Source: a virus
Length of the DNA stretch: 45,964 nt
Direction: 5' to 3' (one strand)
IMG/VR virus record: IMGVR_UViG_3300033998_000339
Coordinates: 1-45,964 of that record
Below are positions 20-45,662 of this stretch, in pieces. A model generated the notes under the pieces. That model was given only the letters and a program-made list of their open reading frames with translations. It was not told where the DNA came from and did not search any database. A program made the translations under genes and the position numbers. Each line of letters starts with the position of its first letter. Within the stretch, counting starts at the first letter, position 1.

Positions 20-94
20 GGGCGGGTAGTTCAGTGGGAGAACGTCTGCTTGACGCGCAGAAGGTCGTAGGTTCAATTCCTACCCCGCCCACCA
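20..94 (+). tRNA. tRNA-Val (anticodon GAC)
   Basis: This 75-base cloverleaf has acceptor stem GGGCGGG/CCCGCCC, D stem GTTC/GAAC (29-32 with 40-43), anticodon stem TCTGC/GCAGA (45-49 with 57-61), loop TTGACGC with anticodon GAC at 52-54, T arm with GTTCAATTC, and an encoded CCA at 92-94. It is intact because the phage attachment sequence restores its 3' half. The original 3' half now lies at 45607-45651. Confidence 0.95.
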
Positions 95-105
95 GGAAAA
101 TCAAG
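50..105. repeat. attL core, 56-base direct repeat
   Basis: Bases 50-105 are identical to 45607-45662. The repeat starts in the anticodon loop and runs through the encoded CCA plus 11 bases. Sequence diverges immediately on both sides (C/A before, A/T after). This is the classic product of tyrosine-integrase recombination into a tRNA 3' end. Confidence 0.93.
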
Positions 106-4799: not shown

Positions 4800-5971
4800 G
4801 AATAGCCCACATCGGAGATGTCCACTGGGGCCTGGGGTACCCCGGCCCCACTCCCCAATCCCGCTTTGAGGATATTACACGGGTCATGGACTGGGTAGCC
4901 GACCGCATAATTGAGGAACAATGTAATCTTGTGCTATTCGCCGGCGATGCTTTCAAGGATGCCAGGGTCTTTCTGGACCGGGCCAGCGTGGAGATCAAGG
5001 CCTTTGCCGACTGGCTACGCAAGGTGACGGCGGCCGGTATCCCGGTAATAGCCATAAGCGGTACACCCAGCCATGATGCCATTTCAGCCTACCGTTTGAT
5101 CCAGGATATGCAAATTCCCGGGGTGACCATACTTACTGAACCGGGAGTGGTTCACCACAAGGGTCTTTCCATTGCCTGTCTCCCGGGGATGAGCCGGTCT
5201 GCTTTGGTCACCCAGGAGGAATACCGTGATCTCCCCACACACGTTATCCACCACATAATGACCGACAAAATAAAAGATATCTGCCAGGGGTTACGGGCAC
5301 AATGCGAAAACCTGGCCGTACTCCTGGCCCATCTTACCTACGATCTGGCCAACAAGGGCTTCGAGGACGTTCTGATGCAGCATGAGCCAGTGCTGACTAA
5401 AGAAGCCATCCAGGGGTTTGACCTGGTGTGCTTGGGGCATATACACCGGCCACAACAGAACGGTCGGGTGTTCTACTGCGGGAGCCCGGAGCGTTTGAGT
5501 TTCAACGACGAGCAAATTACCCCCGGTTTTTGGATTCACGAATTTAACCTGGCGATGTTTAGACAGATGACGAATCCTATCAAGTCTCGTTTTATTGAAA
5601 CGCCGGCCAGGCCCTTTGTGACGGCTACCTGGGAGGATTGGGTGGTTGAAGGTTTCATAAAGGGCAGAAAACCCGGCCCGGGCTTTAAGGATGCTGTGGT
5701 TCGCCTCTGGTATAGTTGCTCTGAGGAACTGGCTAAACAAATGGACCGCAAAGCTCTGGAGAGGGCGCTTTATGAAGTCGGTGCTTTCTATGTTGCTGAG
5801 ATCAAAGCCGACATCCAGCGAATAGATAGGGTCCGGGACCAGGGGGTTACTGAGACCCTGGGACCGGTAGAGGCCCTGGCCAGGTGGGCTAAGCAACATA
5901 ATATCCCCGATAACGAGATCGAGGCCCTGCAGGCCATGACCGCAGGGCTGCTGGAGGAGGTAACTATATGA
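4796..5971 (+). CDS. sbcD: SbcD-like nuclease subunit (metallophosphoesterase)
   Basis: This 391-residue protein is the Mre11-type nuclease partner of SbcC, acting on DNA ends and hairpins. Metal-site motifs are D8 and H10 (GDVHWG), D51 (AGDAF), H93-D94 (GTPSHD, replacing the usual GNHD), a histidine in LAHLTYD, and GHIHRPQ. The C-terminal 120 residues match the capping region. It overlaps its neighbours by ATGA on both sides, so the three-gene set is translationally coupled. In phages SbcCD relatives serve replication, recombination and end processing. Confidence 0.9.
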   Translation: MRIAHIGDVHWGLGYPGPTPQSRFEDITRVMDWVADRIIEEQCNLVLFAGDAFKDARVFLDRASVEIKAFADWLRKVTAAGIPVIAISGTPSHDAISAYRLIQDMQIPGVTILTEPGVVHHKGLSIACLPGMSRSALVTQEEYRDLPTHVIHHIMTDKIKDICQGLRAQCENLAVLLAHLTYDLANKGFEDVLMQHEPVLTKEAIQGFDLVCLGHIHRPQQNGRVFYCGSPERLSFNDEQITPGFWIHEFNLAMFRQMTNPIKSRFIETPARPFVTATWEDWVVEGFIKGRKPGPGFKDAVVRLWYSCSEELAKQMDRKALERALYEVGAFYVAEIKADIQRIDRVRDQGVTETLGPVEALARWAKQHNIPDNEIEALQAMTAGLLEEVTI

Positions 5972-8514
5972 TCCCTTTGCGCATCGAGGTTACTAATTTT
6001 GGGGCCATCCCCCATGCAGATATTAACCTTTCTAACATAAACCTGGCAGCTGTAGCGGGGCCTAACGGCGCCGGAAAGTCAACTCTCTTCACCATTGCCC
6101 CGATGTTTGCCCTTTTCGGGACCACGAAGAACGGGTGCAGTGCGGACGATATGGTCCGCACCGGCACCCAGGAAATGGCCGTCAGCTTTGAGTTTGAGCA
6201 CCGGGGAGAAATCTATCGGGTCATCCGGACCCGCAGCCGGCGGGGTAAGGGCAAAACCACTCTGGAACTGCAGCATCTAGTTGGGGAGCAATGGACCAGC
6301 GAGTCAGGCACTACCATTCGGGAGACAGAAGAAAAGATACGTGATCTTCTTAATTTGGACGCGGAGACCTTTGCGGCCAGTAGCATGATCCTTCAGGGCC
6401 GGGCTAATGAGTTTACCGCTAAACCACCGGGCCAGCGGAAAGCGGTCCTGGCCCAAATCCTCGGGCTAGAGATTTACGACGCCCTCCAGGAAAAGGCCCG
6501 GGAGAAGGAGCGGGCCGCCCACGTGGCACTGGAAAAAGCCAAGGCGAAGGCGGCAGAACTGGATGAAAAGCTGCAGACTCGGGCCGGGCTGCAGGATGAA
6601 TTGGCGGAGATAGAGACTCAACTTGCGGACCTGGCCAGGGAGATCGAGGACAAAGAGGCGGAGTTGCTACAAGCCGAGGAACAGGCCCGAGAGGCTGCAG
6701 CCAAGGCTGAGAAGGCCAGGGACCTCGAAAGCCAGATCAAGGCTTTGACCGATGAAATCGCGGTCAAGCAACAGGAGCGCCAGAAGCTCCAAGAGCAGGC
6801 CGAGCGGGCCAGGAAGATGCTGGATGCCGAGGCCCAGATTATGGCCAAGGCTGCCGAGTTAGAGCAAGTCAAACAGCAGATTACCGAGTTAAAGACCAGG
6901 CAACCCATGCTGGCCGAAGTCCAGGCGGAGGAGGCCCGGATTGCAAGCGAGCTGCGCCGGATCGAAACCGGCATTAGCAAGCTAAAATCCCAGATCGAAG
7001 CTACCGAGGCAGCCCTGGCTAACAGGGGGGCTCTGGAGAAGGCCGCGACCGACTACCAGATAGCCCTGGCGGAACTAGAAGCATTAGATGCCATAGCGGA
7101 ACTGTGGCAGGCTTTGGATGCACAGGCCAAGGAGGCTCATGCTGCATGGAGGCAGGCTGAAACAGAATTTGAAGCCCGTGCCAGGACATTGGAAAAGGAA
7201 CTGGCAGACCTCCGGGCCAGGACCGATATGCTGGCCAACAGCGGGTGCCTGGATCCGGAGCGGGCAGCCTGCAAGTTCTTAGCCGATGCCCAGGCCGCCA
7301 AGGCGAGGATACCACAGGTGCAGGCAGAGTATGACAGCCTAAACCGGACGCCAGTTATCCAATTGGAGCAGGTCTGGCGCGATTTGGAAGCACAGCGAGA
7401 CGCCCTGGGGTATGACGCAAAGGAGCGGCAGCGCCTGAAGGATATGGTCGCGGCCCTCCGGCCCAAGGCGGAGCAAGCTGTCCAGTTGGCCTCTAAAGCT
7501 GAATTGCTCCAGAACCTGCAGGAGCAGTTACAGGGCGCCGAGGAGCAGCGGGCTGAACTTGTCAATAGGCTTGAGGAAATCCGCCAGAAGGTCGGACAAC
7601 TGGCTAACGAGTTGCGGGCTTTACCATTACTTGAAGAGCGGGCCAAGAAACTCGAGGGTTGGGCCAGGGCCAAAGAAGAGTTGCCGGCGGCCCGCCAGAT
7701 AGCGACCACCGCAGCAGAAAGGCTAGAGGCCATCACCAGAGAGGTCGAAACGAAGGAAGACCGGGCCAAGGAACTGGAGCAAGAGCGCCAGAACCTCCTG
7801 AAGGATGCCGCCCAAGCTCCCGCTTACAAAGCCCGGGCCGAAGAATTAAGGCTGGGGATAAAGCAGTTGCAGGAGCAGCAAAACAGCATCTATGCCCGGG
7901 TGGGCAGTCTCAAGGCCCAACTAGAGGCCCTGGACAAAGCACAAGAGGAGCGCCGGCAACTGACCGCCGCGATGGAGCCTATGGCCAAAGAACAGGCCCG
8001 ATGGCAAACCCTGGTCAAGGCCTTCGGCCGTGATGGGATACCGGCCCTAATCATCGAAAATGCGGTTCCGGAACTGGAGCGGATCGCCAACGAAATCCTG
8101 GGTCAGATGAGCAAAGGGGAGCATTCCTTGAAATTTGAGACACAGCGGAATTTAAAGAGCAGGGCTGGGATGGCGGAAACCTTGGACATCATCGTTTCGG
8201 ATTGGAACGGGGAGAGGCCCTACGAGACATTTTCCGGCGGAGAACAGTTACGGATTGACTTCGCTATTAGGTTTGCCCTGGCAGAACTCCTGGCCCGCCG
8301 GGCTGGTTCCCGTATAGAATGGCTGACCGTGGATGAGGGCCTGGGGAGCCAGGATGCGGAACACAGAGCGCTGGTCCTGGAGGCTATCAAAGCTGTGGCG
8401 GACAGGTTTAAAAAGGTGTTTGTCATCACGCACATTGAGGAGGCCAAATCATTCTTCGACCAGGTTATTTATGTAGAATCTAACGGGGCGGGAACTGAGG
8501 TAAAGATTGCCTGA
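5968..8514 (+). CDS. sbcC: SbcC-like SMC-type ATPase subunit
   Basis: This 848-residue Rad50-type ATPase has Walker A GPNGAGKS near residue 31, a long Ala/Glu/Lys/Gln-rich coiled coil from about 170 to 690, and C-terminal ABC signature SGGEQ with Walker B LTVDEGLGSQD. The coil apex is exactly central, with Cys427 and Cys435 in a C-x7-C spacing instead of the CxxC zinc hook. It overlaps sbcD by four bases (ATGA). It forms the DNA-end clamp that controls the SbcD nuclease. The high GC and codon bias match the neighbouring late genes. Confidence 0.92.
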   Translation: MIPLRIEVTNFGAIPHADINLSNINLAAVAGPNGAGKSTLFTIAPMFALFGTTKNGCSADDMVRTGTQEMAVSFEFEHRGEIYRVIRTRSRRGKGKTTLELQHLVGEQWTSESGTTIRETEEKIRDLLNLDAETFAASSMILQGRANEFTAKPPGQRKAVLAQILGLEIYDALQEKAREKERAAHVALEKAKAKAAELDEKLQTRAGLQDELAEIETQLADLAREIEDKEAELLQAEEQAREAAAKAEKARDLESQIKALTDEIAVKQQERQKLQEQAERARKMLDAEAQIMAKAAELEQVKQQITELKTRQPMLAEVQAEEARIASELRRIETGISKLKSQIEATEAALANRGALEKAATDYQIALAELEALDAIAELWQALDAQAKEAHAAWRQAETEFEARARTLEKELADLRARTDMLANSGCLDPERAACKFLADAQAAKARIPQVQAEYDSLNRTPVIQLEQVWRDLEAQRDALGYDAKERQRLKDMVAALRPKAEQAVQLASKAELLQNLQEQLQGAEEQRAELVNRLEEIRQKVGQLANELRALPLLEERAKKLEGWARAKEELPAARQIATTAAERLEAITREVETKEDRAKELEQERQNLLKDAAQAPAYKARAEELRLGIKQLQEQQNSIYARVGSLKAQLEALDKAQEERRQLTAAMEPMAKEQARWQTLVKAFGRDGIPALIIENAVPELERIANEILGQMSKGEHSLKFETQRNLKSRAGMAETLDIIVSDWNGERPYETFSGGEQLRIDFAIRFALAELLARRAGSRIEWLTVDEGLGSQDAEHRALVLEAIKAVADRFKKVFVITHIEEAKSFFDQVIYVESNGAGTEVKIA

Positions 8515-8523
8515 TAAAAACAC

Positions 8524-9354
8524 ATGATAAAAACACAGAAACCGAATGATTTAAAGTTCAAGGTGGTGGTTAAAGTGGATTATTTCGATCTGGTCAAACC
8601 CACCTACATAGAGAACTGGCCGGATGGGCTTATCAATCACTCGATAGCTACAGTTCATTTCCCACTTACCAAAGAACAAGTTAGATCATTGATTGCTCTA
8701 AATTATATGACCATGGAAGACGGACGCGAGCCAAAACCAGAAGAAAGAACTACATTCCTGAAGTTGGCGCGAAAATTATCGGAATATATAAAGCAATTTC
8801 CGAAAGGGGCGTTTGTCCGTTTAGGTAGCAGGAGCCCGAAAGATTCCTGGAAAGGACATAGGGATGGTTTTCGGTGCACTTCGGCAACTAAAGCATTAGC
8901 CCTTCTATGCGACAGTGAGAGGATATACGACGACCTGAATCTCGCCTTATCGAACAATTACACACCACACTTGGTTGTCAGGGAGTGGATTGAAATTGAA
9001 CCCTGGCAGGAGTTCCGGTGTTTTTACAAAAACCGGCGGCTGGTAGGAATATCACAGTATAACTACCTGAAAGGCGAAGTGTTCCCGGAAATAATAGAAC
9101 TGGCCGGAGCGATTGAGTGGGCGATAAGGCAAAAAAGCGAAATTATTGCCTCGCTTCTTCCGGCGGATGATGTGGTGGTTGATTACATCTACCGGGTAAA
9201 GCAGCGTGGTAATGAGCGGATAAACGAGGTAATATTGTTGGAGTGCAACCCATTCATGGTATACACTGACCCCTGCCTGTTTAACTGGTCAAAAGACACA
9301 TTCAATGAGTTTGAGTTTAGATATATGGAGCCGAACGGGGCGGGACAGAGGTGA
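8524..9354 (+). CDS. CDC123-like (D123 family) ATP-grasp protein
   Basis: This 276-residue protein matches the layout of the eukaryotic CDC123/D123 family. It has FVRLGSRSPKDSW (about 97-109), LVVREWIEIEPWQEFRCF with ISQYNYLKG (about 149-180), VVDYIYRV, and ECNPFMVYTDPCLFNW near the end. These correspond to the nucleotide- and metal-binding parts of an ATP-grasp fold. Eukaryotic CDC123 helps assemble eIF2; bacterial relatives are predicted to modify proteins or RNA. It starts ten bases after sbcC with no good ribosome binding site, so translation may depend on the upstream gene. It looks more A/T-rich than sbcC, which hints at separate acquisition. The family call is by motif recognition. Confidence 0.75.
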   Translation: MIKTQKPNDLKFKVVVKVDYFDLVKPTYIENWPDGLINHSIATVHFPLTKEQVRSLIALNYMTMEDGREPKPEERTTFLKLARKLSEYIKQFPKGAFVRLGSRSPKDSWKGHRDGFRCTSATKALALLCDSERIYDDLNLALSNNYTPHLVVREWIEIEPWQEFRCFYKNRRLVGISQYNYLKGEVFPEIIELAGAIEWAIRQKSEIIASLLPADDVVVDYIYRVKQRGNERINEVILLECNPFMVYTDPCLFNWSKDTFNEFEFRYMEPNGAGQR

Positions 9355-9361
9355 AGGTGGC

Positions 9362-9682
9362 ATGATCCTGTTTAAGCCAGAGCACGTCGATTTGATCCTT
9401 GCCGGCAAGAAGACCCAGACCAGGCGCATCGGTCGGCGCCGCTGGCGCGTCGGGTCGGTACATCAAGCGAAAACCGATTTTAAAAAGGGTAGCAAGCCTT
9501 TCGCCTTGCTCCGCATTATTTCCGTGCGCCAGGAACGGCTTGGGGATATTTCGGAGGACGATGCCCGGAGGGAAGGTTATCCGTCTATCGAGGCTTACAA
9601 AGAGGTTTTTAAGCGGATATATGGATGGTGGGACCCGAACGAGCTGGTGTGGGTTGTAGACTTCGAGGTGGTGTCGGTCTAA
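9362..9682 (+). CDS. ASCH-domain protein
   Basis: This 106-residue protein begins MILFKPEHVDLILAGKKTQT, the N-terminal signature of ASCH domains, followed by a basic RRIGRRRWRVG loop. ASCH domains have a PUA-like fold and are predicted or shown to bind RNA or modified nucleotides. GAGGTGAAGGTGG precedes the ATG at 9362; an upstream in-frame GTG/ATG region lies inside the previous gene and was not used. Phage ASCH genes often lie near Gp37/Gp68-type genes, as here. Confidence 0.8.
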   Translation: MILFKPEHVDLILAGKKTQTRRIGRRRWRVGSVHQAKTDFKKGSKPFALLRIISVRQERLGDISEDDARREGYPSIEAYKEVFKRIYGWWDPNELVWVVDFEVVSV

Positions 9683-9713: not shown

Positions 9714-10631
9714 ATGGGACAAACGAGGATAGAGTGGGCAACGGACGTTTGGAACCCCGTCACTGGCTGCACCCCGGTTAGTGAGGGCTGCCAAAACTGC
9801 TATGCCCGAATGATGGCTACCAGGCTCCGCGGTCGGTTTGGATATCCTGAAGATAATCCGTTCAGGGTAACACTGCATCCTGGCAGGGTGAGTTCGTTGG
9901 AACCAGCCTTGCGTGGCACGGGCAAGATCATTTTTGTTTGTTCAATGGGTGACCTTTTTCACCAGGACGTTCCGGAATCATTTATTCGAGAGATCCTGAA
10001 ACTGGTTACCGCAACAGGTCAACACACTTTTTTGATGTTAACTAAACGTCCAGAGCGGATGCGGAACGTTTTTAAAAGTTATTATGCAACAGGTGCTGCT
10101 ATAATCCGTAATTTATGGCTCGGCGTTACCGCCGAAAACCAAAAAACCGCCGATGAGCGCATCCCGATTCTGTTGCAGATTCCTGCGGCGGTGAGGTTTG
10201 TGAGTTGTGAGCCGCTGTTGGGGCCAATAGATTTATCCGCTTTCAAACCGTTCGATGGCGAGTGTTTCTGTCAGGATGATCCGAAGGGCTGCAAACCCCG
10301 CCTCACACCTAATTGCCCGGTGACAGCAATAGATTGGGTCATCTGTGGCGGCGAAACCGGCCCTAATGCCCGGCCCATGCACCTGGACTGGGTGCGGAGC
10401 TTGCGGGACCAGTGTCGTGAGGCAGAGGTGCCGTTCTTCTTCAAGCAGTGGGGCGAGTGGCAGTTGGTTAATCTCATGGAGCCGCTGGATGTTCGGAACA
10501 AGGAGACCGGGGACTTTGAGACATGGCCAGCAGGCAAAGAAGTTTTTAAGCGGGTTGGCCGTAAGGCCGCCGGCCGTCTACTGGACGGGCGGACGTGGAA
10601 TGAGATGCCAAATACGGAGGTGTCTAAATGA
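9714..10631 (+). CDS. DUF5131 (phage Gp37/Gp68) family protein
   Basis: This 305-residue protein starts with IEWATDVWNPVTGC and carries a three-cysteine cluster C-x6-C-x2-C (CTPVSEGCQNC), similar to radical-SAM-like iron-sulfur binding. Later blocks IFVCSMGDLFH, LTKRPERM, LWLGVTAENQ, CEPLLGPIDL and VICGGETGP are diagnostic of the family. A metal- or SAM-dependent modification role is predicted for these but the reaction is not established. The ATG at 9714 follows GAGGGTG. Its end overlaps the next gene (ATGA). Confidence 0.85.
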   Translation: MGQTRIEWATDVWNPVTGCTPVSEGCQNCYARMMATRLRGRFGYPEDNPFRVTLHPGRVSSLEPALRGTGKIIFVCSMGDLFHQDVPESFIREILKLVTATGQHTFLMLTKRPERMRNVFKSYYATGAAIIRNLWLGVTAENQKTADERIPILLQIPAAVRFVSCEPLLGPIDLSAFKPFDGECFCQDDPKGCKPRLTPNCPVTAIDWVICGGETGPNARPMHLDWVRSLRDQCREAEVPFFFKQWGEWQLVNLMEPLDVRNKETGDFETWPAGKEVFKRVGRKAAGRLLDGRTWNEMPNTEVSK

Positions 10632-11878: not shown

Positions 11879-12817
11879 ATGATGGCCAACTTCACAAAAA
11901 TTTCCCCCTACCGTGCCGGGCCTCCAAGGTTCGGCCGGGCCCCTGGGGAGGAACCAGCGAACGGGCCGGTTATCACGTACCGCCTCAGCCCAGAGGAGAT
12001 AGCCCGCCGGTATGGGCCGCCGGGAGATAGTGAATGGAGGGGTGAAGACATGCCGTCGAAACTGGACATTTCTAAAGAGCAGATTGAAAACGCGCTCAGG
12101 GTTACGCAGGGCAACGCGAAGAAGGCCATAGAGATTTTGAAAATCGGCGTTGGGACGTTTTACAGCCGGGTTAAGGAATTCGGCATCGACGTGGCCAGCT
12201 TCAGGGCGCCGGAGGCGGGCACTGGGGGAACTCAGGACGCGGGCCCAGCGGAAGTGGCGAAGGAAGCGGCGGATCCGGTACTGAAATCCGCGGAGCCGGA
12301 ATCTGCGTCAACAGAAACTGCGGGGCCGGAAACCTGGGAAACGCATTACGAGGAACCGGCGTACCCTGCTCTGGAAATCCCGGAACCGGAACCTTTCAAA
12401 GAACCTGCATCTTCTCAGCTGGCGAACAACGGAGGTGCCACCGAGGACATCTTCTCTACCTGGCTGCGAATTAAGCGGAATTACACCGGCACTAAGGAAA
12501 ACGCGATCAGCATCGATAAACGTGGTACCGTCCGGCTGTTGAGTGACGTCGGGAGTGCTTTTAAACTCGGTGACCGGGTGGAATTTTTCTTGAGCCCGGA
12601 CAAAACACGTTTAGCATTGAGGAAAACGGACGATGCTGACGGTTTTAGGCTCCGATCCGAAAACAAAAGCAAGGCGAAGATATGCAACTGCGGGGAACTG
12701 AAAAATCTTCTCCTGGAGGCCGGGGTTGAGCTGCCGGCGCGGTTCGCGGCGCAGTGGGGCGAGCGGCTGCAGGCGTGGATCGGGAGGCGGTGTATACCGA
12801 TCCAGGGAAGGTGGTGA
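11879..12817 (+). CDS. Putative DNA-binding regulator with Fis-type HTH
   Basis: This 312-residue protein has three parts. The first 55 residues are Pro/Gly-rich. A helical segment at about 64-105 (QIENALRVTQGNAKKAIEIL, then VGTFYSRVKEFGID) looks like a Fis/NtrC-type helix-turn-helix. After an acidic Pro/Glu/Ala linker comes a compact C-terminal domain (about 195-260: AISIDKRGTVRLL, FKLGDRVEFFLSPDKTRLALRK) of beta-rich, AbrB-like look. Two start codons are adjacent (ATGATG) after GAGGTG. A transcriptional role is an inference from the HTH. Confidence 0.5.
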   Translation: MMANFTKISPYRAGPPRFGRAPGEEPANGPVITYRLSPEEIARRYGPPGDSEWRGEDMPSKLDISKEQIENALRVTQGNAKKAIEILKIGVGTFYSRVKEFGIDVASFRAPEAGTGGTQDAGPAEVAKEAADPVLKSAEPESASTETAGPETWETHYEEPAYPALEIPEPEPFKEPASSQLANNGGATEDIFSTWLRIKRNYTGTKENAISIDKRGTVRLLSDVGSAFKLGDRVEFFLSPDKTRLALRKTDDADGFRLRSENKSKAKICNCGELKNLLLEAGVELPARFAAQWGERLQAWIGRRCIPIQGRW

Positions 12818-12821
12818 CGCC

Positions 12822-13232
12822 ATGAAGCTTTATCACTTTACTGCCGCACATCTGGTTGGTCATATTCTCAGGGACGGTATAACACTTGGGGTGCTGCCTG
12901 TCTTAGACGAAGACGGTCGGGTAAAGTTTCTCGCTGGACCTTGCCAGTGGCTAACAGATGATCCAGGTTGGGGTTCTCAAGGTTGGGCGACCAGGAAAAA
13001 GCTTACCTATGACCGGACGGCTGCGAGGTTAACGGTAGCTATTCCGAAGTGTCATCGTTACCGGCTGATACGGGCTTATGACTACCTCCCGTGCCTTCCG
13101 CCGCCGACACGCAGGTTGATCACTGATTGGGAAGGCAGCGAGCACTGGTACCTATTCTTTGGCAAGATACCTCCGGGCTGGATTCGCAAGGTGGAGTGGA
13201 AACCTGAAACCAAACAAGATTTAGGGAGGTAA
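12822..13232 (+). CDS. Hypothetical protein, ADP-ribosyltransferase-like fold suspected
   Basis: This 136-residue protein begins MKLYHFTAAHLVGHILRDGI, the pattern (Tyr-His-Phe-Thr, then a helix ending in Gly-Ile) seen at the start of several small ART-fold and DarT-like families. A WLTDDPGWGSQGWATR block follows, and EGSEHWYLFFGKIP near the end could supply the glutamate. The ATG at 12822 has GGTGGTGACG upstream; an open frame reaching back to 12726 lies inside the previous gene. Without a structure or search the fold remains a guess. Confidence 0.45.
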   Translation: MKLYHFTAAHLVGHILRDGITLGVLPVLDEDGRVKFLAGPCQWLTDDPGWGSQGWATRKKLTYDRTAARLTVAIPKCHRYRLIRAYDYLPCLPPPTRRLITDWEGSEHWYLFFGKIPPGWIRKVEWKPETKQDLGR

Positions 13233-15383: not shown

Positions 15384-15869
15384 ATGGCCCGGTACGACTG
15401 GGAGGCCCTAAAAAGGGAATTCCTGCTTGGAGATTACAAGTCGGTTAGAGAATTTGCCCGGCAGAAGGGCTTAAAATATAACGCGTACTTTGCCAAGCGG
15501 ACTAAAGGCTGGGCCGGTGAGAAGCAAGCAAAGAAAAGGCAAAAGGAAAGCAAAATCGTTAAGGCGGTTCTAGAGAAACAGGCCCAGCACGAGATTGACT
15601 GGAACACCCGGCACTTAGAGATTTGGGGCAAGCTGCTAGTGATAATCCTGGAGGCGGTGGAAGACTACCGCCTCCAATTTGTTAGCGAGAAGACCGGGCG
15701 GCTTAACGTCTATGCCCTGGAGAAGGTGGCCAACATTATCGAGAAGGCTCAGAAGGGCCAGAGGTTATCTTTGGGGCTGGATGAGAAGACCGAGAAGGAC
15801 GACGGCAGCCTACAAGAGCTTGCCGATGCCATCAGGGAAAGCCTTAAAGCCCTGGGTGAGAGCAAATGA
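15384..15869 (+). CDS. terS: Terminase small subunit
   Basis: This 161-residue protein has an N-terminal HTH (REFARQKGLKYNAYFAKRTK) like PBSX/SPP1-type small terminases and a central oligomerisation helix. It recognises phage DNA for packaging. The ATG at 15384 follows GGGAGGTG. It overlaps terL by ATGA. The packaging site is expected in or near this gene but is not identifiable by eye. Confidence 0.78.
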   Translation: MARYDWEALKREFLLGDYKSVREFARQKGLKYNAYFAKRTKGWAGEKQAKKRQKESKIVKAVLEKQAQHEIDWNTRHLEIWGKLLVIILEAVEDYRLQFVSEKTGRLNVYALEKVANIIEKAQKGQRLSLGLDEKTEKDDGSLQELADAIRESLKALGESK

Positions 15870-17074
15870 GCTTTGCCTGGGGCAGATTCAGCCGGAAGCA
15901 GCTTGATGTTATTGCCAACGCTACGGCCCGATTGAATATACTGGACGGCTCCGTGCGCTCCGGTAAGACAATTGCCAGCTTAGTAGCGTGGATAATGTTC
16001 GTTGGGGAGGCCCCACCGGGCGAGTTACTCATGGTGGGCAAGACGGAGCGAACGCTAAAGCGCAACGTGCTGGACTTGTTGGAGAGCATGGTGGGTAGCA
16101 AGCACTTCAAGTACAAGCAAGGGGCTGGCGAAGCTTATTTATTCGGCCGCAGGATTTACCTTGCTGGGGCAAACGATGAGCGGGCTGAAGGCAAGATTAG
16201 AGGCATGACTTTAGCCGGAGCTTATGGAGATGAGATAACACTTTGGCCGGAGAGTTTCTTTACGATGTTACTCTCTCGGCTTTCATTGCCGGGTGCGAGG
16301 TTTATAGGTACTACAAATCCCGACAGCCCTTTTCACTGGCTTAACACTAGGTATCTCGAAAAAGCCGGGCTGCTTAACCTAAAGCGGTGGCAGTTTAGAC
16401 TTGAGGACAATCTAAACCTCGACCCGGCCTACGTCGAAGCCCTTAAGAAGGAATACACCGGCCTGTGGTATAAGCGGTTCATCCTGGGGCTTTGGGTGCT
16501 TGCCGAAGGTGCCATATATGACATGTGGGATGATGCCCGGTTTGTTAGGCCGGCGCCGGAAGATTTGCAGCGTTTCATTGTTGCCGTTGATTATGGCACC
16601 AGTAATCCCTGTACGTTTGGGCTGTACGCTTGGAAAGACGGGCCAAGACCAGTGGTGCATTTAGTCCGGGAATACTGGTACGATTCTAAAGAAACCGGGC
16701 GCCAGAAAACGGATGCAGAATATGCTGATGATTTCAGGGAATGGCTCGGCGATATAAACCCGGAAGCAATTTACGTCGATCCCTCAGCAGCAAGCTTTAT
16801 CGCCGAGTTGAGGAAGCGAGGGTATACAGTAAGCGATGCGAATAACGACGTTATAGACGGGATCCGGTTTGTCGCGTCTATGCTGAACCAGGAGAGGTTT
16901 TTTGTTGACCCGAGTTGCATTAATACAATAAAAGAATTTGCTTCATATGTTTGGGACCCAAGAGCGCAGTTAAAAGGCGAAGATAAACCGCTAAAACAAA
17001 ACGACCATGCCATGGACCGCAACAGGTACGCTTTGCACAGTCACTTTAATTACGAACCTATTCAGTTGTGGTAG
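15866..17074 (+). CDS. terL: Terminase large subunit, PBSX family
   Basis: This 402-residue packaging motor has Walker A GSVRSGKT (28-35), Walker B followed by catalytic Glu (AGAYGDE), the coupling motif region GTTNPDSP, and a C-terminal RNase-H-type nuclease with metal-binding Asp in VAVDYG and downstream YVDPSAASF. It cuts concatemeric DNA and pumps it into the prohead. Length fits the family. It overlaps terS by four bases and is followed after three bases by the portal gene. Confidence 0.93.
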   Translation: MSFAWGRFSRKQLDVIANATARLNILDGSVRSGKTIASLVAWIMFVGEAPPGELLMVGKTERTLKRNVLDLLESMVGSKHFKYKQGAGEAYLFGRRIYLAGANDERAEGKIRGMTLAGAYGDEITLWPESFFTMLLSRLSLPGARFIGTTNPDSPFHWLNTRYLEKAGLLNLKRWQFRLEDNLNLDPAYVEALKKEYTGLWYKRFILGLWVLAEGAIYDMWDDARFVRPAPEDLQRFIVAVDYGTSNPCTFGLYAWKDGPRPVVHLVREYWYDSKETGRQKTDAEYADDFREWLGDINPEAIYVDPSAASFIAELRKRGYTVSDANNDVIDGIRFVASMLNQERFFVDPSCINTIKEFASYVWDPRAQLKGEDKPLKQNDHAMDRNRYALHSHFNYEPIQLW

Positions 17075-24798: not shown

Positions 24799-26106
24799 AT
24801 GCGTGGCGGACTTTTTAATCCAATTACGGACCTGCAATTAGTTATTGCTTCCCTCCCGGCGCATTACGAACGTGATATCAGGTGGACGCAAAAGCCCGGG
24901 GCAAGGACAGTGTTGCTGTCTCCAAACAGGTTGACAGTCAACATCGGCAATCAAGGCTACAAGCTCGACTCCCAGATAGAGCTTGACCTGAATATAGCTG
25001 CAAATTGGGATTCAATAAGCCCCAGCGACTACACGGTGGCTGCAAACCGGGCAGGGAAAGATTTTTACATCTATGCCTGCCAGCCAGTCAGCGGCACAGC
25101 ACCAAAGATATTACTTTCAGCCAATTCAACTGTACCCAGCGGGTATAATGCTAATAATTCTCGTAAAATAGGAGGTTTTCATTGCCTTTGTGTAGGTGTT
25201 AATCATGCCAGCACTTTGACAGCGTGGGCACCTAATACGTCAATAAGTATAGGTGTTACAAGGAGAGCTACCACCTGGGATGGTTACTTATATAGATGTA
25301 TCACGGCGGGTACTACCGGCACAGCTGAGCCAACATGGTCAAATTACAGTGTTGGTCAGACAATTACAGATGGTAGTGTTACATGGTTAAAAGAGAGTCA
25401 TAGTCTTGAGGGATATGAGGCGGGCGATATTCTTCCTGCTTCCATTTGGGACTTAAAACACAGGCCCGTATCCAATCCGGAGGGAATGGTCTATTCCGAG
25501 GCGGCGAACATCTGGGTAGATATTTATCTCCAATCCGGCACCGGCGCAAATACCGCCAGTGTGTTTGGCGCAACTATCACCGACAACCGTAACTGGATGG
25601 ACTTTGTTGACGACGCCGGCGCGGTTAGAAAAACTCTTCTCTCTGACATTGAATTCCAACTGATTGCTGCTGGCAGCAATGAAGAAACCAATATAGCGGG
25701 AAGTGCTGATCCAGGCACTACCGGCGGCCATGTGGATATAGCAGGAAGGCGTATGATCAGCAACATTGGTTGCGAAGATTGCTGTGGGGTTATGTGGCAG
25801 TGGCTAAGGGATCAGTCTTTTAGAGTTGAGGCGAACCACACTCACACTGAAAACACAGCTGCCACATATACTCAGAATGCAACCACGGCCGCTACCGACT
25901 TTGCCGTCTGGAGATGGTATGATCTTCCCGGTGCCAAAGGGTCTTTATACAGACAGGGAGCCTTCGGTGATGTAAAGTTGCGCGCGGGCGCGGCTTGGAC
26001 CGATGGCGCGTCTTCCGGGTCGCGGTCTCGTGATGCGGCTGGCTATCGCTGGTATGCGGCTGCGGCTATCGGTTGCCGGCTGCACGCGGAGCCTTTAAGA
26101 GCGTAG
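24799..26106 (+). CDS. DGR target: variable ligand-binding tail protein (C-type-lectin-like)
   Basis: This 435-residue protein probably displays a variable binding surface at the tail. The last third resembles the C-type lectin/formylglycine-enzyme-like fold of DGR targets (WDLKHRPVSNPEGMVYSEAA, MWQWLRDQSF). The variable segment at residues 393-431 carries GSRSRDAAGYRW and IGCRLHA, followed by five fixed residues. A probable insertion at about 148-200 resembles a carbohydrate-binding module (WDGYLYRCITAGTTGTAEPT). Fifteen codons differ from the template, 14 changing the amino acid. All seven template AAT codons are changed. Confidence 0.9.
   Translation: MRGGLFNPITDLQLVIASLPAHYERDIRWTQKPGARTVLLSPNRLTVNIGNQGYKLDSQIELDLNIAANWDSISPSDYTVAANRAGKDFYIYACQPVSGTAPKILLSANSTVPSGYNANNSRKIGGFHCLCVGVNHASTLTAWAPNTSISIGVTRRATTWDGYLYRCITAGTTGTAEPTWSNYSVGQTITDGSVTWLKESHSLEGYEAGDILPASIWDLKHRPVSNPEGMVYSEAANIWVDIYLQSGTGANTASVFGATITDNRNWMDFVDDAGAVRKTLLSDIEFQLIAAGSNEETNIAGSADPGTTGGHVDIAGRRMISNIGCEDCCGVMWQWLRDQSFRVEANHTHTENTAATYTQNATTAATDFAVWRWYDLPGAKGSLYRQGAFGDVKLRAGAAWTDGASSGSRSRDAAGYRWYAAAAIGCRLHAEPLRA
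25977..26090 (+). repeat. DGR variable repeat (VR)
   Basis: This 114-base segment is offset 166 bases from the template repeat. The 19 substitutions are A to G (12), A to C (5) and A to T (2), read template to variable. It ends 13 bases before the TAG stop codon of the target gene begins. Confidence 0.97.
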
Positions 26107-26142: not shown

Positions 26143-26256
26143 GTTGCACGCAGGCACGGATTGGACCAATGGCACGAATTCCGGGTCGCGGTCTCGTAAT
26201 GCGAATAGCTATCGCTGGAATGCGAATGCGAATATCAGTTGCCAGCTGCACGCGGA
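26143..26256 (+). repeat. DGR template repeat (TR)
   Basis: This is the non-coding donor for the variable repeat, containing 27 adenines of which 19 are altered in the present variable copy. Seven AAT codons in the reading frame of the target can mutate to many residues but not to stop codons. Its transcript is copied by the adjacent reverse transcriptase. The region 26257-26381 between it and the RT gene presumably forms part of the structured template RNA. Confidence 0.97.
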
Positions 26257-26381
26257 TACAGGATTTGAGCTAACTCCTGGCTGGACCTGTTGGCCTTGTT
26301 CCGGGAAACCGGGGCAAAATACGAGAAAGGAGTTTGGGAATAGCTAGTAGTCATAACGAACGTTATTCCCAAAAAATAATT

Positions 26382-27410
26382 ATGAAAAGACATGGGAACC
26401 TGTTTTCGAAGATAGTTGATCCAGATAATATTTATAAAGCTTATCGTAACGCCCGGAAGGGCAAAGGATGGCAAAGAACGGTCCAGGAATTTGAGAAAAA
26501 TCTTGACACAAACTTGGCCAAAATTCGGCAAAGCTTAATTAACAAGACTTTCAGAACATCACGTTACAAGATAAAGATCATACACGAACCAAAAGAACGA
26601 GTCATCTACAGATTGCCTTTTAACCCCGACAGAATTGTCCAACATGCGCTTATGAATGTGCTTGAGCCGATTTGGGATAAATTGTTCATCTATGATTCAT
26701 ATGCTTGCAGAAAAGGAAAGGGAATTCACGCCGGGAGCAGGCGCACAATGGAGTTTGTTAGAAGGAATAAATATTGCCTTAAGTGCGATATTTCTAAGTT
26801 TTACCCCTCGATTAACCATGACATCTTATATAATATCGTACAGAGAAAAATTAAGTGCAAGGATACGTTATGGTTGATAAAGGACATTATTTATAGCATA
26901 GGCGGCGGCGTGAATGTTCCTATTGGTAACTATACAAGCCAGTGGTTTGGCAATCTGTACCTGAATGAGCTTGACCAGTTTATCAAACATAAATGTCACA
27001 TTAAAGATTATATCCGTTACTGCGACGATTTTTTGTTGTTTCATAACGATAAGAAATTGTTGGGTGAAATGGCCCAGGTTATTGAGTGCTTTTTAAGGGA
27101 GAAGTTACAACTTAAGCTTAGTAAAATTGATCTTTTTCCGGTGTCAAGAGGCGTTGATTTTCTCGGCTACAGACATTTTAAGGGATATATACTTATCCGG
27201 AAGAGTACGGTTAAACGGGTTAAGAAGAGGCTGAAGAAGCTCCCCATTCTTCTTGAGAAAGGCAGAATTACCCTCGACCAATACCGCTCATCGCTGGCTT
27301 CAACAATGGGATGGTTGAGATGGGCCAACAGTTACAATCTACGGAAAAGCCTTCAGATTGATTTATTGATGGAGGCGTGCAATGGAAAAGCAGAAAATAA
27401 AAAGATTTAG
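26382..27410 (+). CDS. DGR reverse transcriptase
   Basis: This 342-residue RT copies the template RNA with errors opposite adenine. Catalytic Asp136 (KCDISKFYPSI) and the YCDD box at 213-216 (RYCDDFLLF) are intact. Motif IGNYTSQ at 181-187 is the DGR-type form, where group II intron RTs have QGxxxSP. I chose ATG 26382, though no strong ribosome site precedes it; TTG at 26334 has AAAGGAG but at too short a spacing. The gene looks clearly more A/T-rich than the surrounding structural genes, in keeping with transfer as a cassette. It overlaps the next gene by 29 bases. Confidence 0.95.
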   Translation: MKRHGNLFSKIVDPDNIYKAYRNARKGKGWQRTVQEFEKNLDTNLAKIRQSLINKTFRTSRYKIKIIHEPKERVIYRLPFNPDRIVQHALMNVLEPIWDKLFIYDSYACRKGKGIHAGSRRTMEFVRRNKYCLKCDISKFYPSINHDILYNIVQRKIKCKDTLWLIKDIIYSIGGGVNVPIGNYTSQWFGNLYLNELDQFIKHKCHIKDYIRYCDDFLLFHNDKKLLGEMAQVIECFLREKLQLKLSKIDLFPVSRGVDFLGYRHFKGYILIRKSTVKRVKKRLKKLPILLEKGRITLDQYRSSLASTMGWLRWANSYNLRKSLQIDLLMEACNGKAENKKI

Positions 27411-38939: not shown

Positions 38940-39695
38940 GTGGTCAAGAAGGTAGTTCTTGACCCAGGCCACGGAGGAATAGACCCGGGAGCAATTGGTC
39001 CCACCGGCGTACAGGAAAAGATAGTTGTTCTGGCTATTGCCCGGCATGCTGCGGACAGACTCCGGCAGCGGGGGGTTAATGTTCGACTTACCAGGGATGA
39101 CGACCGGACCGTAAGCCTGCAGGAGCGGTGCGATATTGCCAACAACTTTGGGGCGAACTGCTTTGTCTCCATTCACGTTAACAGCACCACAAACACACTT
39201 GCAGAAGGGACAGAGGTATACTACTGTGCTGATCCCAAATCTGCCGAGGGATTTACCCTTGCTACGTATTTGAGCCAGAGCCTATCGGGGGTAGGAACCG
39301 GTCAAACTTCTGTCTTTGGTGTTGACCTGGAAGAAATCCCGGCTACCGCTCAGGAAGCGGAGCAGCTGCGCAACCGGGGCGTAAAAGCGGCCCGGTTTTA
39401 CGTTTTAAGGCACACAATCATGCCTGCTGCATTAGTGGAAGTTGCGTTTCTGAGCAACCCCAAAGAAGAAGGCCTTTTGGAAAGTCCAACCTTCCAGGAG
39501 CAGGCGGGTGAGGCCATAGCCCGCGGAATCTGCGCCTATTTGGGCGTGACCTGGGAAAGCGATTGGGAAAAACAGCGCCAGGCGGCGCTTCAGGAACTAG
39601 CCGCAAAAGCCAGGTTCAACTCACCGCATAAGCCTTCGGAGCCCGTGGATATGGGAATGCTGGCCATTATTTTGCAAAGACTGGGGGTAATCTAA
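38940..39695 (+). CDS. N-acetylmuramoyl-L-alanine amidase (endolysin)
   Basis: This 251-residue zinc amidase of the Amidase_3 family cleaves the lactyl-amide bond in peptidoglycan. Zinc ligands H11 (DPGHGG), E26 and the histidine of VSIHVNS are present, with the catalytic glutamate in ALVEVAFLSN. The C-terminal 50 residues are a linker plus short helix, not a typical SH3 or LysM binding domain. The GTG start at 38940 follows GGGAGGTGG. It acts with the holin just upstream. Confidence 0.93.
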   Translation: MVKKVVLDPGHGGIDPGAIGPTGVQEKIVVLAIARHAADRLRQRGVNVRLTRDDDRTVSLQERCDIANNFGANCFVSIHVNSTTNTLAEGTEVYYCADPKSAEGFTLATYLSQSLSGVGTGQTSVFGVDLEEIPATAQEAEQLRNRGVKAARFYVLRHTIMPAALVEVAFLSNPKEEGLLESPTFQEQAGEAIARGICAYLGVTWESDWEKQRQAALQELAAKARFNSPHKPSEPVDMGMLAIILQRLGVI

Positions 39696-40757
39696 ATGCC
39701 TTATGAAACATGGCGGAAACTCATGAACAAATTAACTACTGAACTTAAAGGCGCCGGCGGACTGACCACCGGCGCTTTTCCTTCGTGGCCTGATTTCCGG
39801 GACTATAAATACAATCATCTGGTACCGACGATTAGCGCCGAACAACTGCCAGCCGAGGTAGACTACCGGCGCAATATGCCGCCGGTATGGGATCAAGGAC
39901 AACTGGGTACCTGCGTGGCAGCGGCCTCCTGCTGGGGGTTGAAAGCGTTCCAAGAAATCAGTCAGGGTGATTTCCCGGCTAAAGGTTTGTCTGTAGCATA
40001 TCTTTATGCCCTGTGCAAGCAGCGGGACGGCATTCCGAATGAAGCAGGCACCTATCCACGGGTGGCGTTGAAGGTATTACAGGAAATCGGCGTCTGCACC
40101 GAAGATGTCCTGCCGTACTCCTGGCTGAACACGGATAAGAATGTTCCTCAACCGCCGGTAAACCTGGCTGAGCAGGCGAGTAAATACCGGATCAAAACCT
40201 ATGCCCAAATTTGCGGCATAACTGACAAAAACCGTTCCGGCACTGTGGAAGCCTTAAAACGGGCCATCTGGCGAGAAGGAGTTGTGTTGGCTGCCCTGTT
40301 GGTTTGCTCTAACTTTTTGGAGCCTAAGGATGGAATTATTCCACTCCCGTCCGGCCGGGTCTTGGGAGGACATGCTGTAACTCTTTGCGGCTACAGCGAC
40401 AAACGGCAGGCATTTCTGCTGCGCAATTCCTGGGGGCAGAAGTGGGGAGAAAATGGTTATGCCTGGTTGCCCTACTCCTGGATAACTGCTCGGGATCTTG
40501 ACATCGGTTATTGGTACTTTTTTGAAGCCTGGACTGCCGTAGACATCGCAGTGCCAAAGGCCGCCAGGAAGATTGAGCTTACCGTAGGCGAAAAAGCAGC
40601 AAAAGTAGACGACGTAATCATCCTGACGGATCAAGAACCACTTATCACCAAGGCCGGTAGAACGGTAGTACCGTTGCGCTTCGTCGCGAGCAACATGGGC
40701 TACCTCGTTAAATACGATCATGCGACAAACAAGATTATCATGACCAAGCCGAATTAG
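39696..40757 (+). CDS. Papain-like (C1) cysteine peptidase with Cu-amine-oxidase-N-like domain
   Basis: Residues about 50-280 of this 353-residue protein are a papain-family peptidase. Cys73 sits in QGQLGTCVAAASCW, the histidine in GGHAVTLCGY and Asn in LLRNSWGQKWGENGYAWLPY. Residues about 290-350 (KIELTVGEKAAKVDDVIILT, KAGRTVVPLRFVASNMGY) match the copper amine oxidase N-terminal-like domain, abundant in extracellular clostridial proteins. There is no signal peptide. It starts immediately after the amidase stop. Role in lysis, cell-wall or virion processing is unknown. Confidence 0.88.
   Translation: MPYETWRKLMNKLTTELKGAGGLTTGAFPSWPDFRDYKYNHLVPTISAEQLPAEVDYRRNMPPVWDQGQLGTCVAAASCWGLKAFQEISQGDFPAKGLSVAYLYALCKQRDGIPNEAGTYPRVALKVLQEIGVCTEDVLPYSWLNTDKNVPQPPVNLAEQASKYRIKTYAQICGITDKNRSGTVEALKRAIWREGVVLAALLVCSNFLEPKDGIIPLPSGRVLGGHAVTLCGYSDKRQAFLLRNSWGQKWGENGYAWLPYSWITARDLDIGYWYFFEAWTAVDIAVPKAARKIELTVGEKAAKVDDVIILTDQEPLITKAGRTVVPLRFVASNMGYLVKYDHATNKIIMTKPN
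39751..39779 (+). terminator. Terminator-like hairpin within the peptidase 5' end
   Basis: GCGCCGG (39751-39757) pairs perfectly with CCGGCGC (39769-39775), followed by TTTT. It lies inside codons 19-28 of the peptidase gene. It could end most lysis transcripts and make the peptidase a low-level product, or be chance in a GC-rich frame. Confidence 0.35.
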
Positions 40758-41211: not shown

Positions 41212-41619
41212 ATGGAGCTGGTATACCATGGTCAAGTAAAGTTTTACCTCGACAGCTTTGTTTGCATTGATGTTCGCTATTTCGATGATTGGTACAATAA
41301 CGATTGCTGGTACATCTCTGTGTATGTGGACCGTAATTACCACCAGAGATGGAGGCTTTCTATATACTGTGCGACCAACGAAGCCTTGGATGCAGCGCGG
41401 TGGCTCGCAGAAAGTTTCAAGACCCAGGGTTTACGGACGCGCGTTAGGCTAAAAGTCGATAAGCCGGCAGAAAAACGCCTTCGCCATATAAGGGAACAGT
41501 ATGGTGAGGCTTGCACACAAAAAAAGGCAGAGTTAACGGATAAAAATATTCCGCATTGGTCAAAGCACAACCCAATTTCCCGGATAGCAAAAATTTTGAT
41601 TACGGAGGTTGGCGAATAA
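41212..41619 (+). CDS. Hypothetical first gene of the right-end operon
   Basis: This 135-residue protein has an N-terminal beta-rich part with many aromatic residues (FVCIDVRYFDDWYNNDCWYI, VYVDRNYHQRWRLSIYC) and a helical basic C-terminal half. ATG at 41212 follows GGGGGAGGG; the upstream ATG at 41194 lacks a ribosome site. Its stop overlaps the ravA start (TAATG), so translation is coupled. No family is recognised. Confidence 0.65.
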   Translation: MELVYHGQVKFYLDSFVCIDVRYFDDWYNNDCWYISVYVDRNYHQRWRLSIYCATNEALDAARWLAESFKTQGLRTRVRLKVDKPAEKRLRHIREQYGEACTQKKAELTDKNIPHWSKHNPISRIAKILITEVGE

Positions 41620-42737
41620 TGCGCAATAAGTTTCTGAGCATCGAAAAGGAATTAAATAGCGCCTATCTTGAGCGCCGGGAGGTCATCCGGGGCTTGCTGG
41701 TGGGCCTGCTCGCTCGCCAGCATGTTCTCTTGCTGGGACCACCTGGTACGGCGAAATCGGCCCTTGCGGAGGATATTTGCAGTAGAATCGGCGGGCGCTA
41801 CTTCCGCTGGCTGCTTGCCCGGACGAGCACACCGGAGGAACTGTTCGGGCCGGTTAGCCTCAAGGCACTGGAGAACGACAGCTACCGGAGGGTTACATCC
41901 GGCAAGCTCCCGGAGGCCGACATTGCCTTCCTTGACGAAATCTGGAAGTGCAATTCCGCCGTCCTGAACAGCCTGCTCACCGTGGTAAACGAGCGGCTGT
42001 TCTTCAATGACGGGCAGCCGGTGCAGGTTCCGCTGCAAATGCTCGTCGGGGCATCAAATGAACTCCCGGAAGACCGGGAGGAACTGGGGGCACTTTGGGA
42101 TCGTTTCCTCCTGCGCTTCGTGGTGTCTTACATCAAAGACCCGCGCAGCTTTGAAAAGCTCCTGGCGGGCGCAGGCGCAGATGGGCGCACCACGATCACC
42201 GCGCAGGAACTTGCCCAGGCCCAAGCGGAAGTCCAGCAGGTGGACATAAGCAAGGTAATCCGGCATATCGCTACCTTGCGGCAGAAGATGTTTGAGCTGA
42301 ACATCCCGGTTTCTGACCGCAGGTGGAAGCAGAGCCTCGACCTTATCCGGGCACACGCCTGGCTGGAAGGACGGGCACAGGCGGCAGAGGACGACCTGGC
42401 GATCCTGGCCGCAGCTCTCTGGCAGGAACCGGGGCAGATCGTCCAAGTGCGGCAGGCGATCATGGCCCTGGCGAACCCGCTTGATCAGGAAGCCCAGGAC
42501 CTACTGGACCAGGCGATGGAAGTCTGGCAGAACGCCATGCAGGCCCCAGATGAGAAAGCATCCTCTGTCGGTGCAGAAGCCAACGCCAAACTGAAGAAAA
42601 TAGCCAAGCGCCTGGAGGAGCTGCAGCGGGAAGCCCAGGCAAAAGGCAAGAGCGACGCCCGGATCGCCGAGGCCCTGTTTCAAGTGATTGGCTGGAACAA
42701 GGAGGTGGTTGCAAAGTGCTTGGGCATCCAGATTTGA
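41619..42737 (+). CDS. ravA: RavA-like MoxR-family AAA+ ATPase
   Basis: This 372-residue ATPase has Walker A GPPGTAKS (40-47), RTSTPEELFGPVSLKALE (the MoxR/RavA pre-sensor region), Walker B AFLDEIWK (D106-E107), sensor LVGASNELPE and VSDRRWKQSLDLIRAHAWL. These closely follow Escherichia RavA. It is much shorter than the 498-residue E. coli protein and lacks most of the LARA discoid domain that binds LdcI. RavA hexamers work with ViaA as chaperones for respiratory and iron-sulfur proteins and affect aminoglycoside sensitivity. A phage role is not known. Confidence 0.88.
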   Translation: MRNKFLSIEKELNSAYLERREVIRGLLVGLLARQHVLLLGPPGTAKSALAEDICSRIGGRYFRWLLARTSTPEELFGPVSLKALENDSYRRVTSGKLPEADIAFLDEIWKCNSAVLNSLLTVVNERLFFNDGQPVQVPLQMLVGASNELPEDREELGALWDRFLLRFVVSYIKDPRSFEKLLAGAGADGRTTITAQELAQAQAEVQQVDISKVIRHIATLRQKMFELNIPVSDRRWKQSLDLIRAHAWLEGRAQAAEDDLAILAAALWQEPGQIVQVRQAIMALANPLDQEAQDLLDQAMEVWQNAMQAPDEKASSVGAEANAKLKKIAKRLEELQREAQAKGKSDARIAEALFQVIGWNKEVVAKCLGIQI

Positions 42738-45606: not shown

Positions 45607-45662
45607 TTGACGCGCAGAAGGTCGTAGGTTCAATTCCTACCCCGCCCACCAGGAAAATCAAG
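45607..45662. repeat. attR core, displaced tRNA-Val 3' end
   Basis: It is identical to 50-105 over 56 bases and carries the original 3' part of the tRNA including CCA. It lacks the 5' half, so it is not a functional tRNA gene. Confidence 0.93.

What the first reader, a model, noticed from the sequence alone, without database searches (positions are those of the whole stretch)
8524..9354. CDC123-like ATP-grasp protein in a prophage early region
Motifs FVRLGSRSPKDSW, REWIEIEPWQEFRCF and ECNPF with TDPCLFNW closely follow the eukaryotic translation-assembly factor CDC123. Bacteria lack eIF2, so the phage version must act on another substrate. It sits between sbcC and two putative nucleic-acid-modifying genes and looks more A/T-rich than sbcC.
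Basis: partly seen in the sequence, partly recalled or inferred. Interest (0 to 1): 0.7.

Follow-up and report, generated by a model that had tools for sequence, protein, structure and literature searches.

The report
Phage-borne CDC123-family ATP-grasp gene
A complete bacterial prophage carries an intact gene for a relative of CDC123, the protein that assembles a translation factor in eukaryotes; such genes were known from eukaryotes, giant viruses and bacterial toxin loci, and here they also turn up in several unrelated tailed phages as late-acquired accessory genes whose target in bacteria is unknown.

Summary
Window 8524-9354 encodes a genuine CDC123 (Pfam D123, R2K.1) protein: profile E 5e-26. 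The AlphaFold model matches solved Cdc123 at Z 20, against 9.6 for the next ATP-grasp protein, and the predicted catalytic residues are kept. It lies in a complete prophage bounded by a 56-bp attL/attR repeat of tRNA-Val, between sbcC and an ASCH-DUF5131 pair. It is an accessory gene added late: a sister phage has only a small ORF between sbcC and ASCH, the gene is A/T-richer, and its last codons are a frameshifted second copy of the sbcC 3' end, which marks the insertion. ASCH and DUF5131 are not its partners (0 of 80 DUF5131 loci carry a CDC123). The family also occurs in five other phage-like IMG/VR contigs, as a remnant in a sixth, and in three large contigs, two of them plasmid-like. None was found in isolate-phage records; BFVD's CDC123 matches are giant viruses. 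Burroughs 2015 predicted peptide-ligase roles and placed phage members in sister family R2K.2. Most likely it is an active ATP-dependent modifier or remodeller of a host protein; the substrate is not shown, and an EF-Tu-type GTPase is a testable guess.

The parts
8575..9324 (+). CDC123/D123 (R2K.1) ATP-grasp coding core, probable start GTG 8575; the ORF as called runs 8524-9354
   Evidence: Pfam D123 4.9e-26, PDB CDC123, fold Z 20, homologue alignment A7
8524..8574 (+). Upstream in-frame extension from ATG 8524, probably untranslated or non-core
   Evidence: Poorly covered by homologues, pLDDT below 50, no Shine-Dalgarno before ATG 8524 but AAGGTGG before GTG 8575
8512..8537 (+). 13-bp tandem repeat (TGATAAAAACACA twice) spanning the sbcC stop and the ATG at 8524
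   Evidence: Sequence
9326..9366 (+). Insertion footprint: second copy of the sbcC 3' end, one base shorter, so the CDC123 frame reads EPNGAGQR and stops; includes the ASCH start
   Evidence: 42-column alignment with the L003 sbcC tail, score 57 against a null maximum of 21 in about 3000 random window stretches; homologue L104 ends just before it
8482..8515 (+). First copy: the window's own sbcC 3' end
   Evidence: Aligned to the second copy with score 36
5968..8514 (+). sbcC
   Evidence: ORF; 84-85% identical at protein level in L002 and L003
4796..5971 (+). sbcD-like nuclease (Metallophos)
   Evidence: Pfam Metallophos 7e-10
9362..9682 (+). ASCH-domain protein, recurrent neighbour of DUF5131
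   Evidence: Pfam ASCH 1.3e-12; weak N4-acetylcytidine amidohydrolase similarity, 20.6 bits against a cut-off of 93
9714..10631 (+). DUF5131 (phrog_2045), radical-SAM-like
   Evidence: Pfam 2.5e-93; phrog_2045; rSAM mobile pair A 53 bits, below cut-off
50..105 (+). attL, tRNA-Val 3' end
   Evidence: 56-bp perfect repeat; tRNA-Val 20-94
45607..45662 (+). attR
   Evidence: 56-bp perfect repeat
15866..17074 (+). Terminase-like large subunit, followed by a portal/head region (reading of ORFs, not profiled)
   Evidence: ORF list, (inference from sequence)

Best explanation
The gene encodes a true CDC123-family (D123, R2K.1) ATP-grasp protein (shown by profile, motif and fold; about 0.97). It is a recently acquired accessory gene placed into the early operon of a complete temperate phage, at the 3' end of sbcC (shown by the sister phage, composition and footprint; about 0.9). 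Most likely it is catalytically competent (inferred from conserved ATP and Mg residues; about 0.85). It is made in the lysogenised or infected bacterium and uses ATP to modify (amide/peptide ligation) or conformationally remodel a host protein, as sister R2K enzymes are predicted to do (inferred; about 0.5). The substrate is not shown. Because the only characterised member grips domain III of the EF-Tu-like GTPase eIF2gamma, a bacterial EF-Tu-type GTPase (EF-Tu, SelB) is the first candidate to test (guess; about 0.15).
For: Family: D123 4.9e-26 against R2K_3 0.11; profile to human CDC123 8e-27. Fold: Cdc123 chains Z 19.4-20.3, next ATP-grasp 9.6. Catalytic set, mapped on human K104, R111, D233, D246xN248: R99 (K in L107 and L108), K106, D220, E240xN242; K106, R153, D220 and N242 are invariant and E240 nearly so in 14 prokaryotic sequences (residues named in PMC4431377 and PMC12860950). 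Accessory nature: L003 and L002 have a small ORF after sbcC, followed in L003 by ASCH-DUF5131, with no D123 match; GC 45% against 58% and the footprint. Recurrence: L104, L105, L106, L107 and L108 carry it at different places near DNA-metabolism genes, with TerL in L104's and L106's contigs. Literature: predicted ATP-dependent peptide ligases in conflict roles (PMC4431377); mammalian CDC123 binds and hydrolyses ATP (PMC12860950).
Against: No ligase product has been shown for any CDC123 in the papers read; in eukaryotes it is described as an assembly chaperone with ATPase activity (PMC12860950, PMC8844851), so 'modifier' may be wrong. The RAGNYA lysine is arginine (R99) in this copy. No conserved partner gene points to a substrate. 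Expression is unknown, and an added gene with a replaced C-terminal tail could be drifting, although the frame is intact.
Confidence: 0.55

Rival explanations
1. It is an ATP-driven chaperone, not a ligase: like eukaryotic CDC123 it binds domain III of a translational GTPase (EF-Tu or SelB) and changes its assembly or activity, shifting host translation in favour of the phage.
For: Closest solved relatives are Cdc123 bound to eIF2gamma domain 3 (8phd, 4zgq); current work calls CDC123 a chaperone and ATPase (PMC12860950, PMC8844851). eIF2gamma and EF-Tu domains III are homologous (own knowledge).
Against: No interface residues could be tested; the family is old and diversified, so binding specificity may not be kept. 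Bacterial relatives sit in toxin loci, not with translation genes.
Confidence: 0.2
2. It is cargo from bacterial toxin loci: a helper of HNH toxin - SUKH immunity cassettes that moved into phages and now serves inter-bacterial or inter-phage conflict.
For: Five of seven plasmid loci read have HNH - SMI1/KNR4 - CDC123, three with VgrG, as in PMC4431377.
Against: No HNH or SUKH gene lies beside the window's copy; none of the L101/L102 genes profiled matched HNH or SUKH, though L104-L108 were not profiled in full. In the tree the alphaproteobacterial toxin-locus clade (100/99) is separate from the phage copies, though Methylobacter's place is unresolved.
Confidence: 0.12
3. It is an anti-defence or superinfection gene working with the adjacent ASCH and DUF5131 genes on nucleic acids or nucleotides.
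For: Same operon; DUF5131 hits PADLOC candidate-defence models PDC-M41B and M30B; ASCH and CDC123 also lie three genes apart in L101, and DUF5131 is upstream of CDC123 in L108.
Against: ASCH-DUF5131 occurs without CDC123 in L003 and L006; 0 of 80 DUF5131 loci carry CDC123; P0001 itself has no PADLOC hit.
Confidence: 0.08
4. It is a neutral passenger: a captured gene expressed weakly or not at all and on its way to decay.
For: Recent insertion with a makeshift C-terminus and a one-base-shorter footprint; a mere remnant of the family sits beside terL in L109.
Against: The frame is intact, the catalytic residues are invariant across distant copies, and the gene occurs in several unrelated phages.
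Confidence: 0.1

Closest known systems
Eukaryotic CDC123 (PF07065; PDB 4zgp, 4zgq, 8phd)
   Same: Fold over about 220-230 residues (Z about 20, 23-25% identity), RSPKD-like, RxW, EFRCF, E/DxNPF and TDxxLF motifs, ATP-site residues
   Different: Eukaryotic protein works on eIF2gamma, absent from bacteria; the phage copy is shorter (276 against 336 residues in human CDC123)
Bacterial CDC123 (R2K.1) of T6SS polymorphic-toxin loci (Burroughs 2015, PMC4431377)
   Same: Same family and size; 26-36% identity; same invariant residues
   Different: They follow an HNH toxin and SUKH immunity gene; the phage gene sits in an early DNA-metabolism operon
Giant-virus (NCLDV) CDC123 proteins, e.g. Clandestinovirus, Cafeteria roenbergensis virus
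   Same: Viral members of the same family, best BFVD structural matches
   Different: Giant viruses of eukaryotes; relation to the phage copies was not tested on one tree
R2K.2/R2K.3 ATP-grasp proteins of phages (Atu_ph07, jumbo phages; PMC7824862)
   Same: Same R2K clade, in phages, predicted peptide ligases
   Different: Atu_ph07 matches R2K_2 and R2K_3 and not D123; the window protein matches D123 and is far below the R2K_3 cut-off

Membership tests
CDC123 / D123 (PF07065, R2K.1) | Profile match above the curated cut-off | tested here: met
   92 bits against 24, E 4.9e-26
CDC123 / D123 (PF07065, R2K.1) | Cdc123-type ATP-grasp fold | tested here: met
   Z 19.4-20.3 to six Cdc123 entries, next 9.6; model pLDDT 80
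CDC123 / D123 (PF07065, R2K.1) | Two R2K basic residues: RAGNYA strand-2 lysine and loop lysine/arginine | tested here: met
   Position of K104 is R99 here (K in L107, L108), a conservative change; loop residue K106 is invariant
CDC123 / D123 (PF07065, R2K.1) | Kinase-like strand Asp and final E/DxN motif | tested here: met
   D220 and E240-C-N242
CDC123 / D123 (PF07065, R2K.1) | ATP binding and hydrolysis | not testable with these tools
   Needs protein
CDC123 / D123 (PF07065, R2K.1) | Binding of eIF2gamma domain III (eukaryotic members) | not testable with these tools
   No eIF2 in bacteria; no complex prediction available
R2K.2 / R2K.3 (PF18299 / PF14243) | Profile match above cut-off | tested here: not met
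   R2K_3 13.1 bits against 26.3; R2K_2 not listed at E up to 1
T6SS polymorphic-toxin-linked CDC123 | HNH toxin - SUKH immunity gene directly upstream | tested here: not met
   Upstream is sbcC, downstream ASCH and DUF5131
ASCH-DUF5131 gene unit | CDC123 as a conserved third member | tested here: not met
   Absent from L003 and L006 and from all 80 DUF5131 loci

The most novel reading that the evidence does not exclude
Tailed phages repeatedly acquire CDC123 to seize a bacterial EF-Tu-type GTPase by ATP-dependent assembly or modification, so that the eukaryotic eIF2 assembly factor descends from a class of bacterial and phage weapons against translation GTPases.
Probability: 0.1. Interest if true: 0.85.

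Novelty: new member of a known kind. Interest (0 to 1): 0.48.

Why it matters
CDC123 is an essential, still poorly understood step of eukaryotic translation, and its bacterial ancestry was inferred from toxin loci and effectors. Finding intact CDC123-family genes in several unrelated tailed phages, independent of toxin loci, supplies a simpler system in which the ancestral reaction (ligase or chaperone, and on what) can be found genetically, and bears on the idea that a eukaryotic translation factor came from conflict systems.

Tried and rejected
Own-sequence scans of viral and genome contigs found nothing, and isolate-phage tblastn with three different members found nothing. An alignment of all plasmid members was too diverse for a collection scan, and A2 scans found no relatives. 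A 14-base W..EFRCF.K pattern worked.

The tree has too few sequences to decide how often phages gained the gene: the viral label needs 2 changes and one origin is not excluded.

Three IMG/VR contigs found last (L118, L121, L122; 124-214 kb) were not counted as phages: L118 carries PRTRC genes and L122 a PRTRC ThiF, and no terminase was found in any of the three. In L118 and L122 CDC123 directly precedes PRTRC_E beside E2-like and ThiF genes, but these two are near-copies, so this is one observation.

The interface with eIF2gamma could not be compared: the human complex paper is not held. The first-reader partner idea (ASCH, DUF5131) was rejected as described. Recoding was considered for L104 (three TGA in its terminase frame): its CDC123 stops at TAA and two neighbours stop at TGA, so there is no sign of recoding there.

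Full report
Observation. The ORF at window 8524-9354 is intact and carries every motif quoted. It matches Pfam D123 at 4.9e-26 and human and fission-yeast Cdc123 in the PDB. A profile of six viral members raises human CDC123 to 8e-27. AlphaFold with six sequences gives mean pLDDT 80. VIA-align puts all six Cdc123 entries at Z 19.4-20.3 over 221-231 residues, rmsd 3.3-3.5, while carbamoyl-phosphate synthetase and D-Ala-D-Ala ligases follow at 9.6 and below. So the fold is not merely ATP-grasp but Cdc123-like.

Residues. Burroughs et al. (PMC4431377) name human K104, a loop lysine/arginine, D233 and D246xN248. By alignment these are R99, K106, D220 and E240xN242. K106, R153, E163, R165, D215, D220, N242 and P243 are invariant among 14 prokaryotic sequences and E240 nearly so. 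R99 is lysine in L107 and L108. The ATP site thus looks functional; that it turns over ATP is inferred.

Gene start and end. Homologues begin near V18. GTG 8575 has AAGGTGG 8 nt upstream, ATG 8524 has none, and residues 1-27 are unconfident in the model. The close homologue L104 ends FEFRYL-stop; the window reads FEFRYMEPNGAGQR-stop. The extra codons are the 3' end of an sbcC gene: 42 columns aligned with the L003 sbcC tail at score 57, against a maximum of 21 for about 3000 random window stretches; one base is missing, which shifts the frame to a stop. The window's own sbcC ends just upstream in a more diverged copy (72% to L002/L003 in its last 47 bases). I read this as recombination at the sbcC tail that set CDC123 between sbcC and ASCH; the order of events is inferred.

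Surroundings. The record is an IMG/VR virus, and its DNA is a whole prophage: tRNA-Val, integrase, and a perfect 56-bp repeat at 50-105 and 45607-45662. The operon reads ssDNA-annealing-like gene (phrog_10048), sbcD, sbcC, CDC123, ASCH, DUF5131. In sister phage L003 (sbcC 84% identical) a small ORF stands in the place of CDC123 before ASCH-DUF5131; L002 has the same small ORF, and no D123 match exists in these records. L006 has ASCH-DUF5131 behind another gene. With GC 45% against 58%, CDC123 is an accessory gene.

Relatives. Seven plasmid loci were read. Sagittula (two strains), Tritonibacter, Rhodobacteraceae S2214 and Methylobacter have HNH - SMI1/KNR4 - CDC123, three of them with VgrG and two with PAAR; Aneurinibacillus has WGR proteins; Sinorhizobium is unannotated. 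This repeats the published picture. In IMG/VR, motif scans gave five further phage-like contigs (L104, L105, L106, L107, L108), a remnant in L109, and three large contigs. L104's contig has TerL, endolysin and a head-like protein, with a Holliday-junction resolvase beside CDC123; L106's has TerL, DnaB and a KTSC gene next door; L107 has ParB, DnaB, DUF1643, ASCH and an exonuclease upstream; L105 has GyrB and a DnaB-like gene; L108 has RecT, DUF5131 and a DNA methylase. L105, L107 and L108 lack a detected terminase and are called phage by IMG/VR and gene content only. L109 has TerL and portal genes beside its remnant.

What is known. Burroughs 2015 assign R2K.1 to eukaryotes, giant viruses and bacteria (T6SS toxin loci, Legionella), and phages to R2K.2. 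The jumbo-phage survey (PMC7824862) mentions R2K enzymes; I tested the phage I take to hold its cited example, Atu_ph07: R2K_2 and R2K_3 match, D123 does not. Foldseek against BFVD gives giant-virus CDC123 proteins on top; the best named tailed-virus entries are generic ATP-grasp proteins (Halogranum virus 1.3e-6, Atu_ph07 1e-3). Full-text searches found no report of CDC123-family genes in tailed phages; most subscription papers are not in that library.

Function. Shown: identity, fold, residues, insertion, recurrence. Inferred: activity. Unknown: reaction and substrate. Two published models compete for the family: peptide ligase (PMC4431377) and ATP-dependent assembly chaperone (PMC12860950, PMC8844851). 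Sporadic occurrence as a mobile accessory gene fits a role in phage-host or phage-phage conflict better than a core phage function. The neighbours do not name a target.

Verdict. An ordinary identification with an unusual address: a known family in a new kind of genome. The interest lies in what the bacterial target will say about the ancestral reaction of CDC123.

Noticed in passing
window 25977-26090, 26143-26256, 26334-27410: Diversity-generating retroelement: variable repeat at the 3' end of a tail-region gene, template repeat, and reverse transcriptase; the two repeats are 83% identical with differences at template A positions.
   Followed up: partly
window 9714-10631: DUF5131 protein hits PADLOC candidate defence models PDC-M41B/M30B and, below cut-off, radical SAM mobile pair protein A; the ASCH-DUF5131 pair recurs in L003 and L006.
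   Followed up: partly
L118 5635-10706, L122: CDC123 with an N-terminal cysteine-rich extension lies 33 bases before PRTRC_E in a cassette with Prok-E2_D and ThiF genes, on 124-178 kb contigs.
   Followed up: partly
L109 8001-8258: A truncated CDC123 C-terminal remnant (TDPCLFNWSKDNFEAFEFRYNK) sits directly before a terminase gene.
   Followed up: partly
window 41556-44149: An AAA-ATPase gene followed by a VWA-like protein gene near attR, resembling MoxR-VWA pairs (reading of sequence; PADLOC gave only weak hits).
   Followed up: no
window 12816-13232: Protein beginning MKLYHFTAAHLVGHILRDGITLG resembles ADP-ribosyltransferase-like folds by eye; no NCBIfam or Pfam match for the ORF.
   Followed up: no
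window 39696-40757: Papain-like cysteine peptidase (WDQGQLGTCVAAAS motif, by eye) next to an amidase-like gene at 38940-39695, an unusual neighbour in a lysis region.
   Followed up: no
L102 161-1993: DNA gyrase B is encoded in the 22-kb viral contig that carries CDC123.
   Followed up: no
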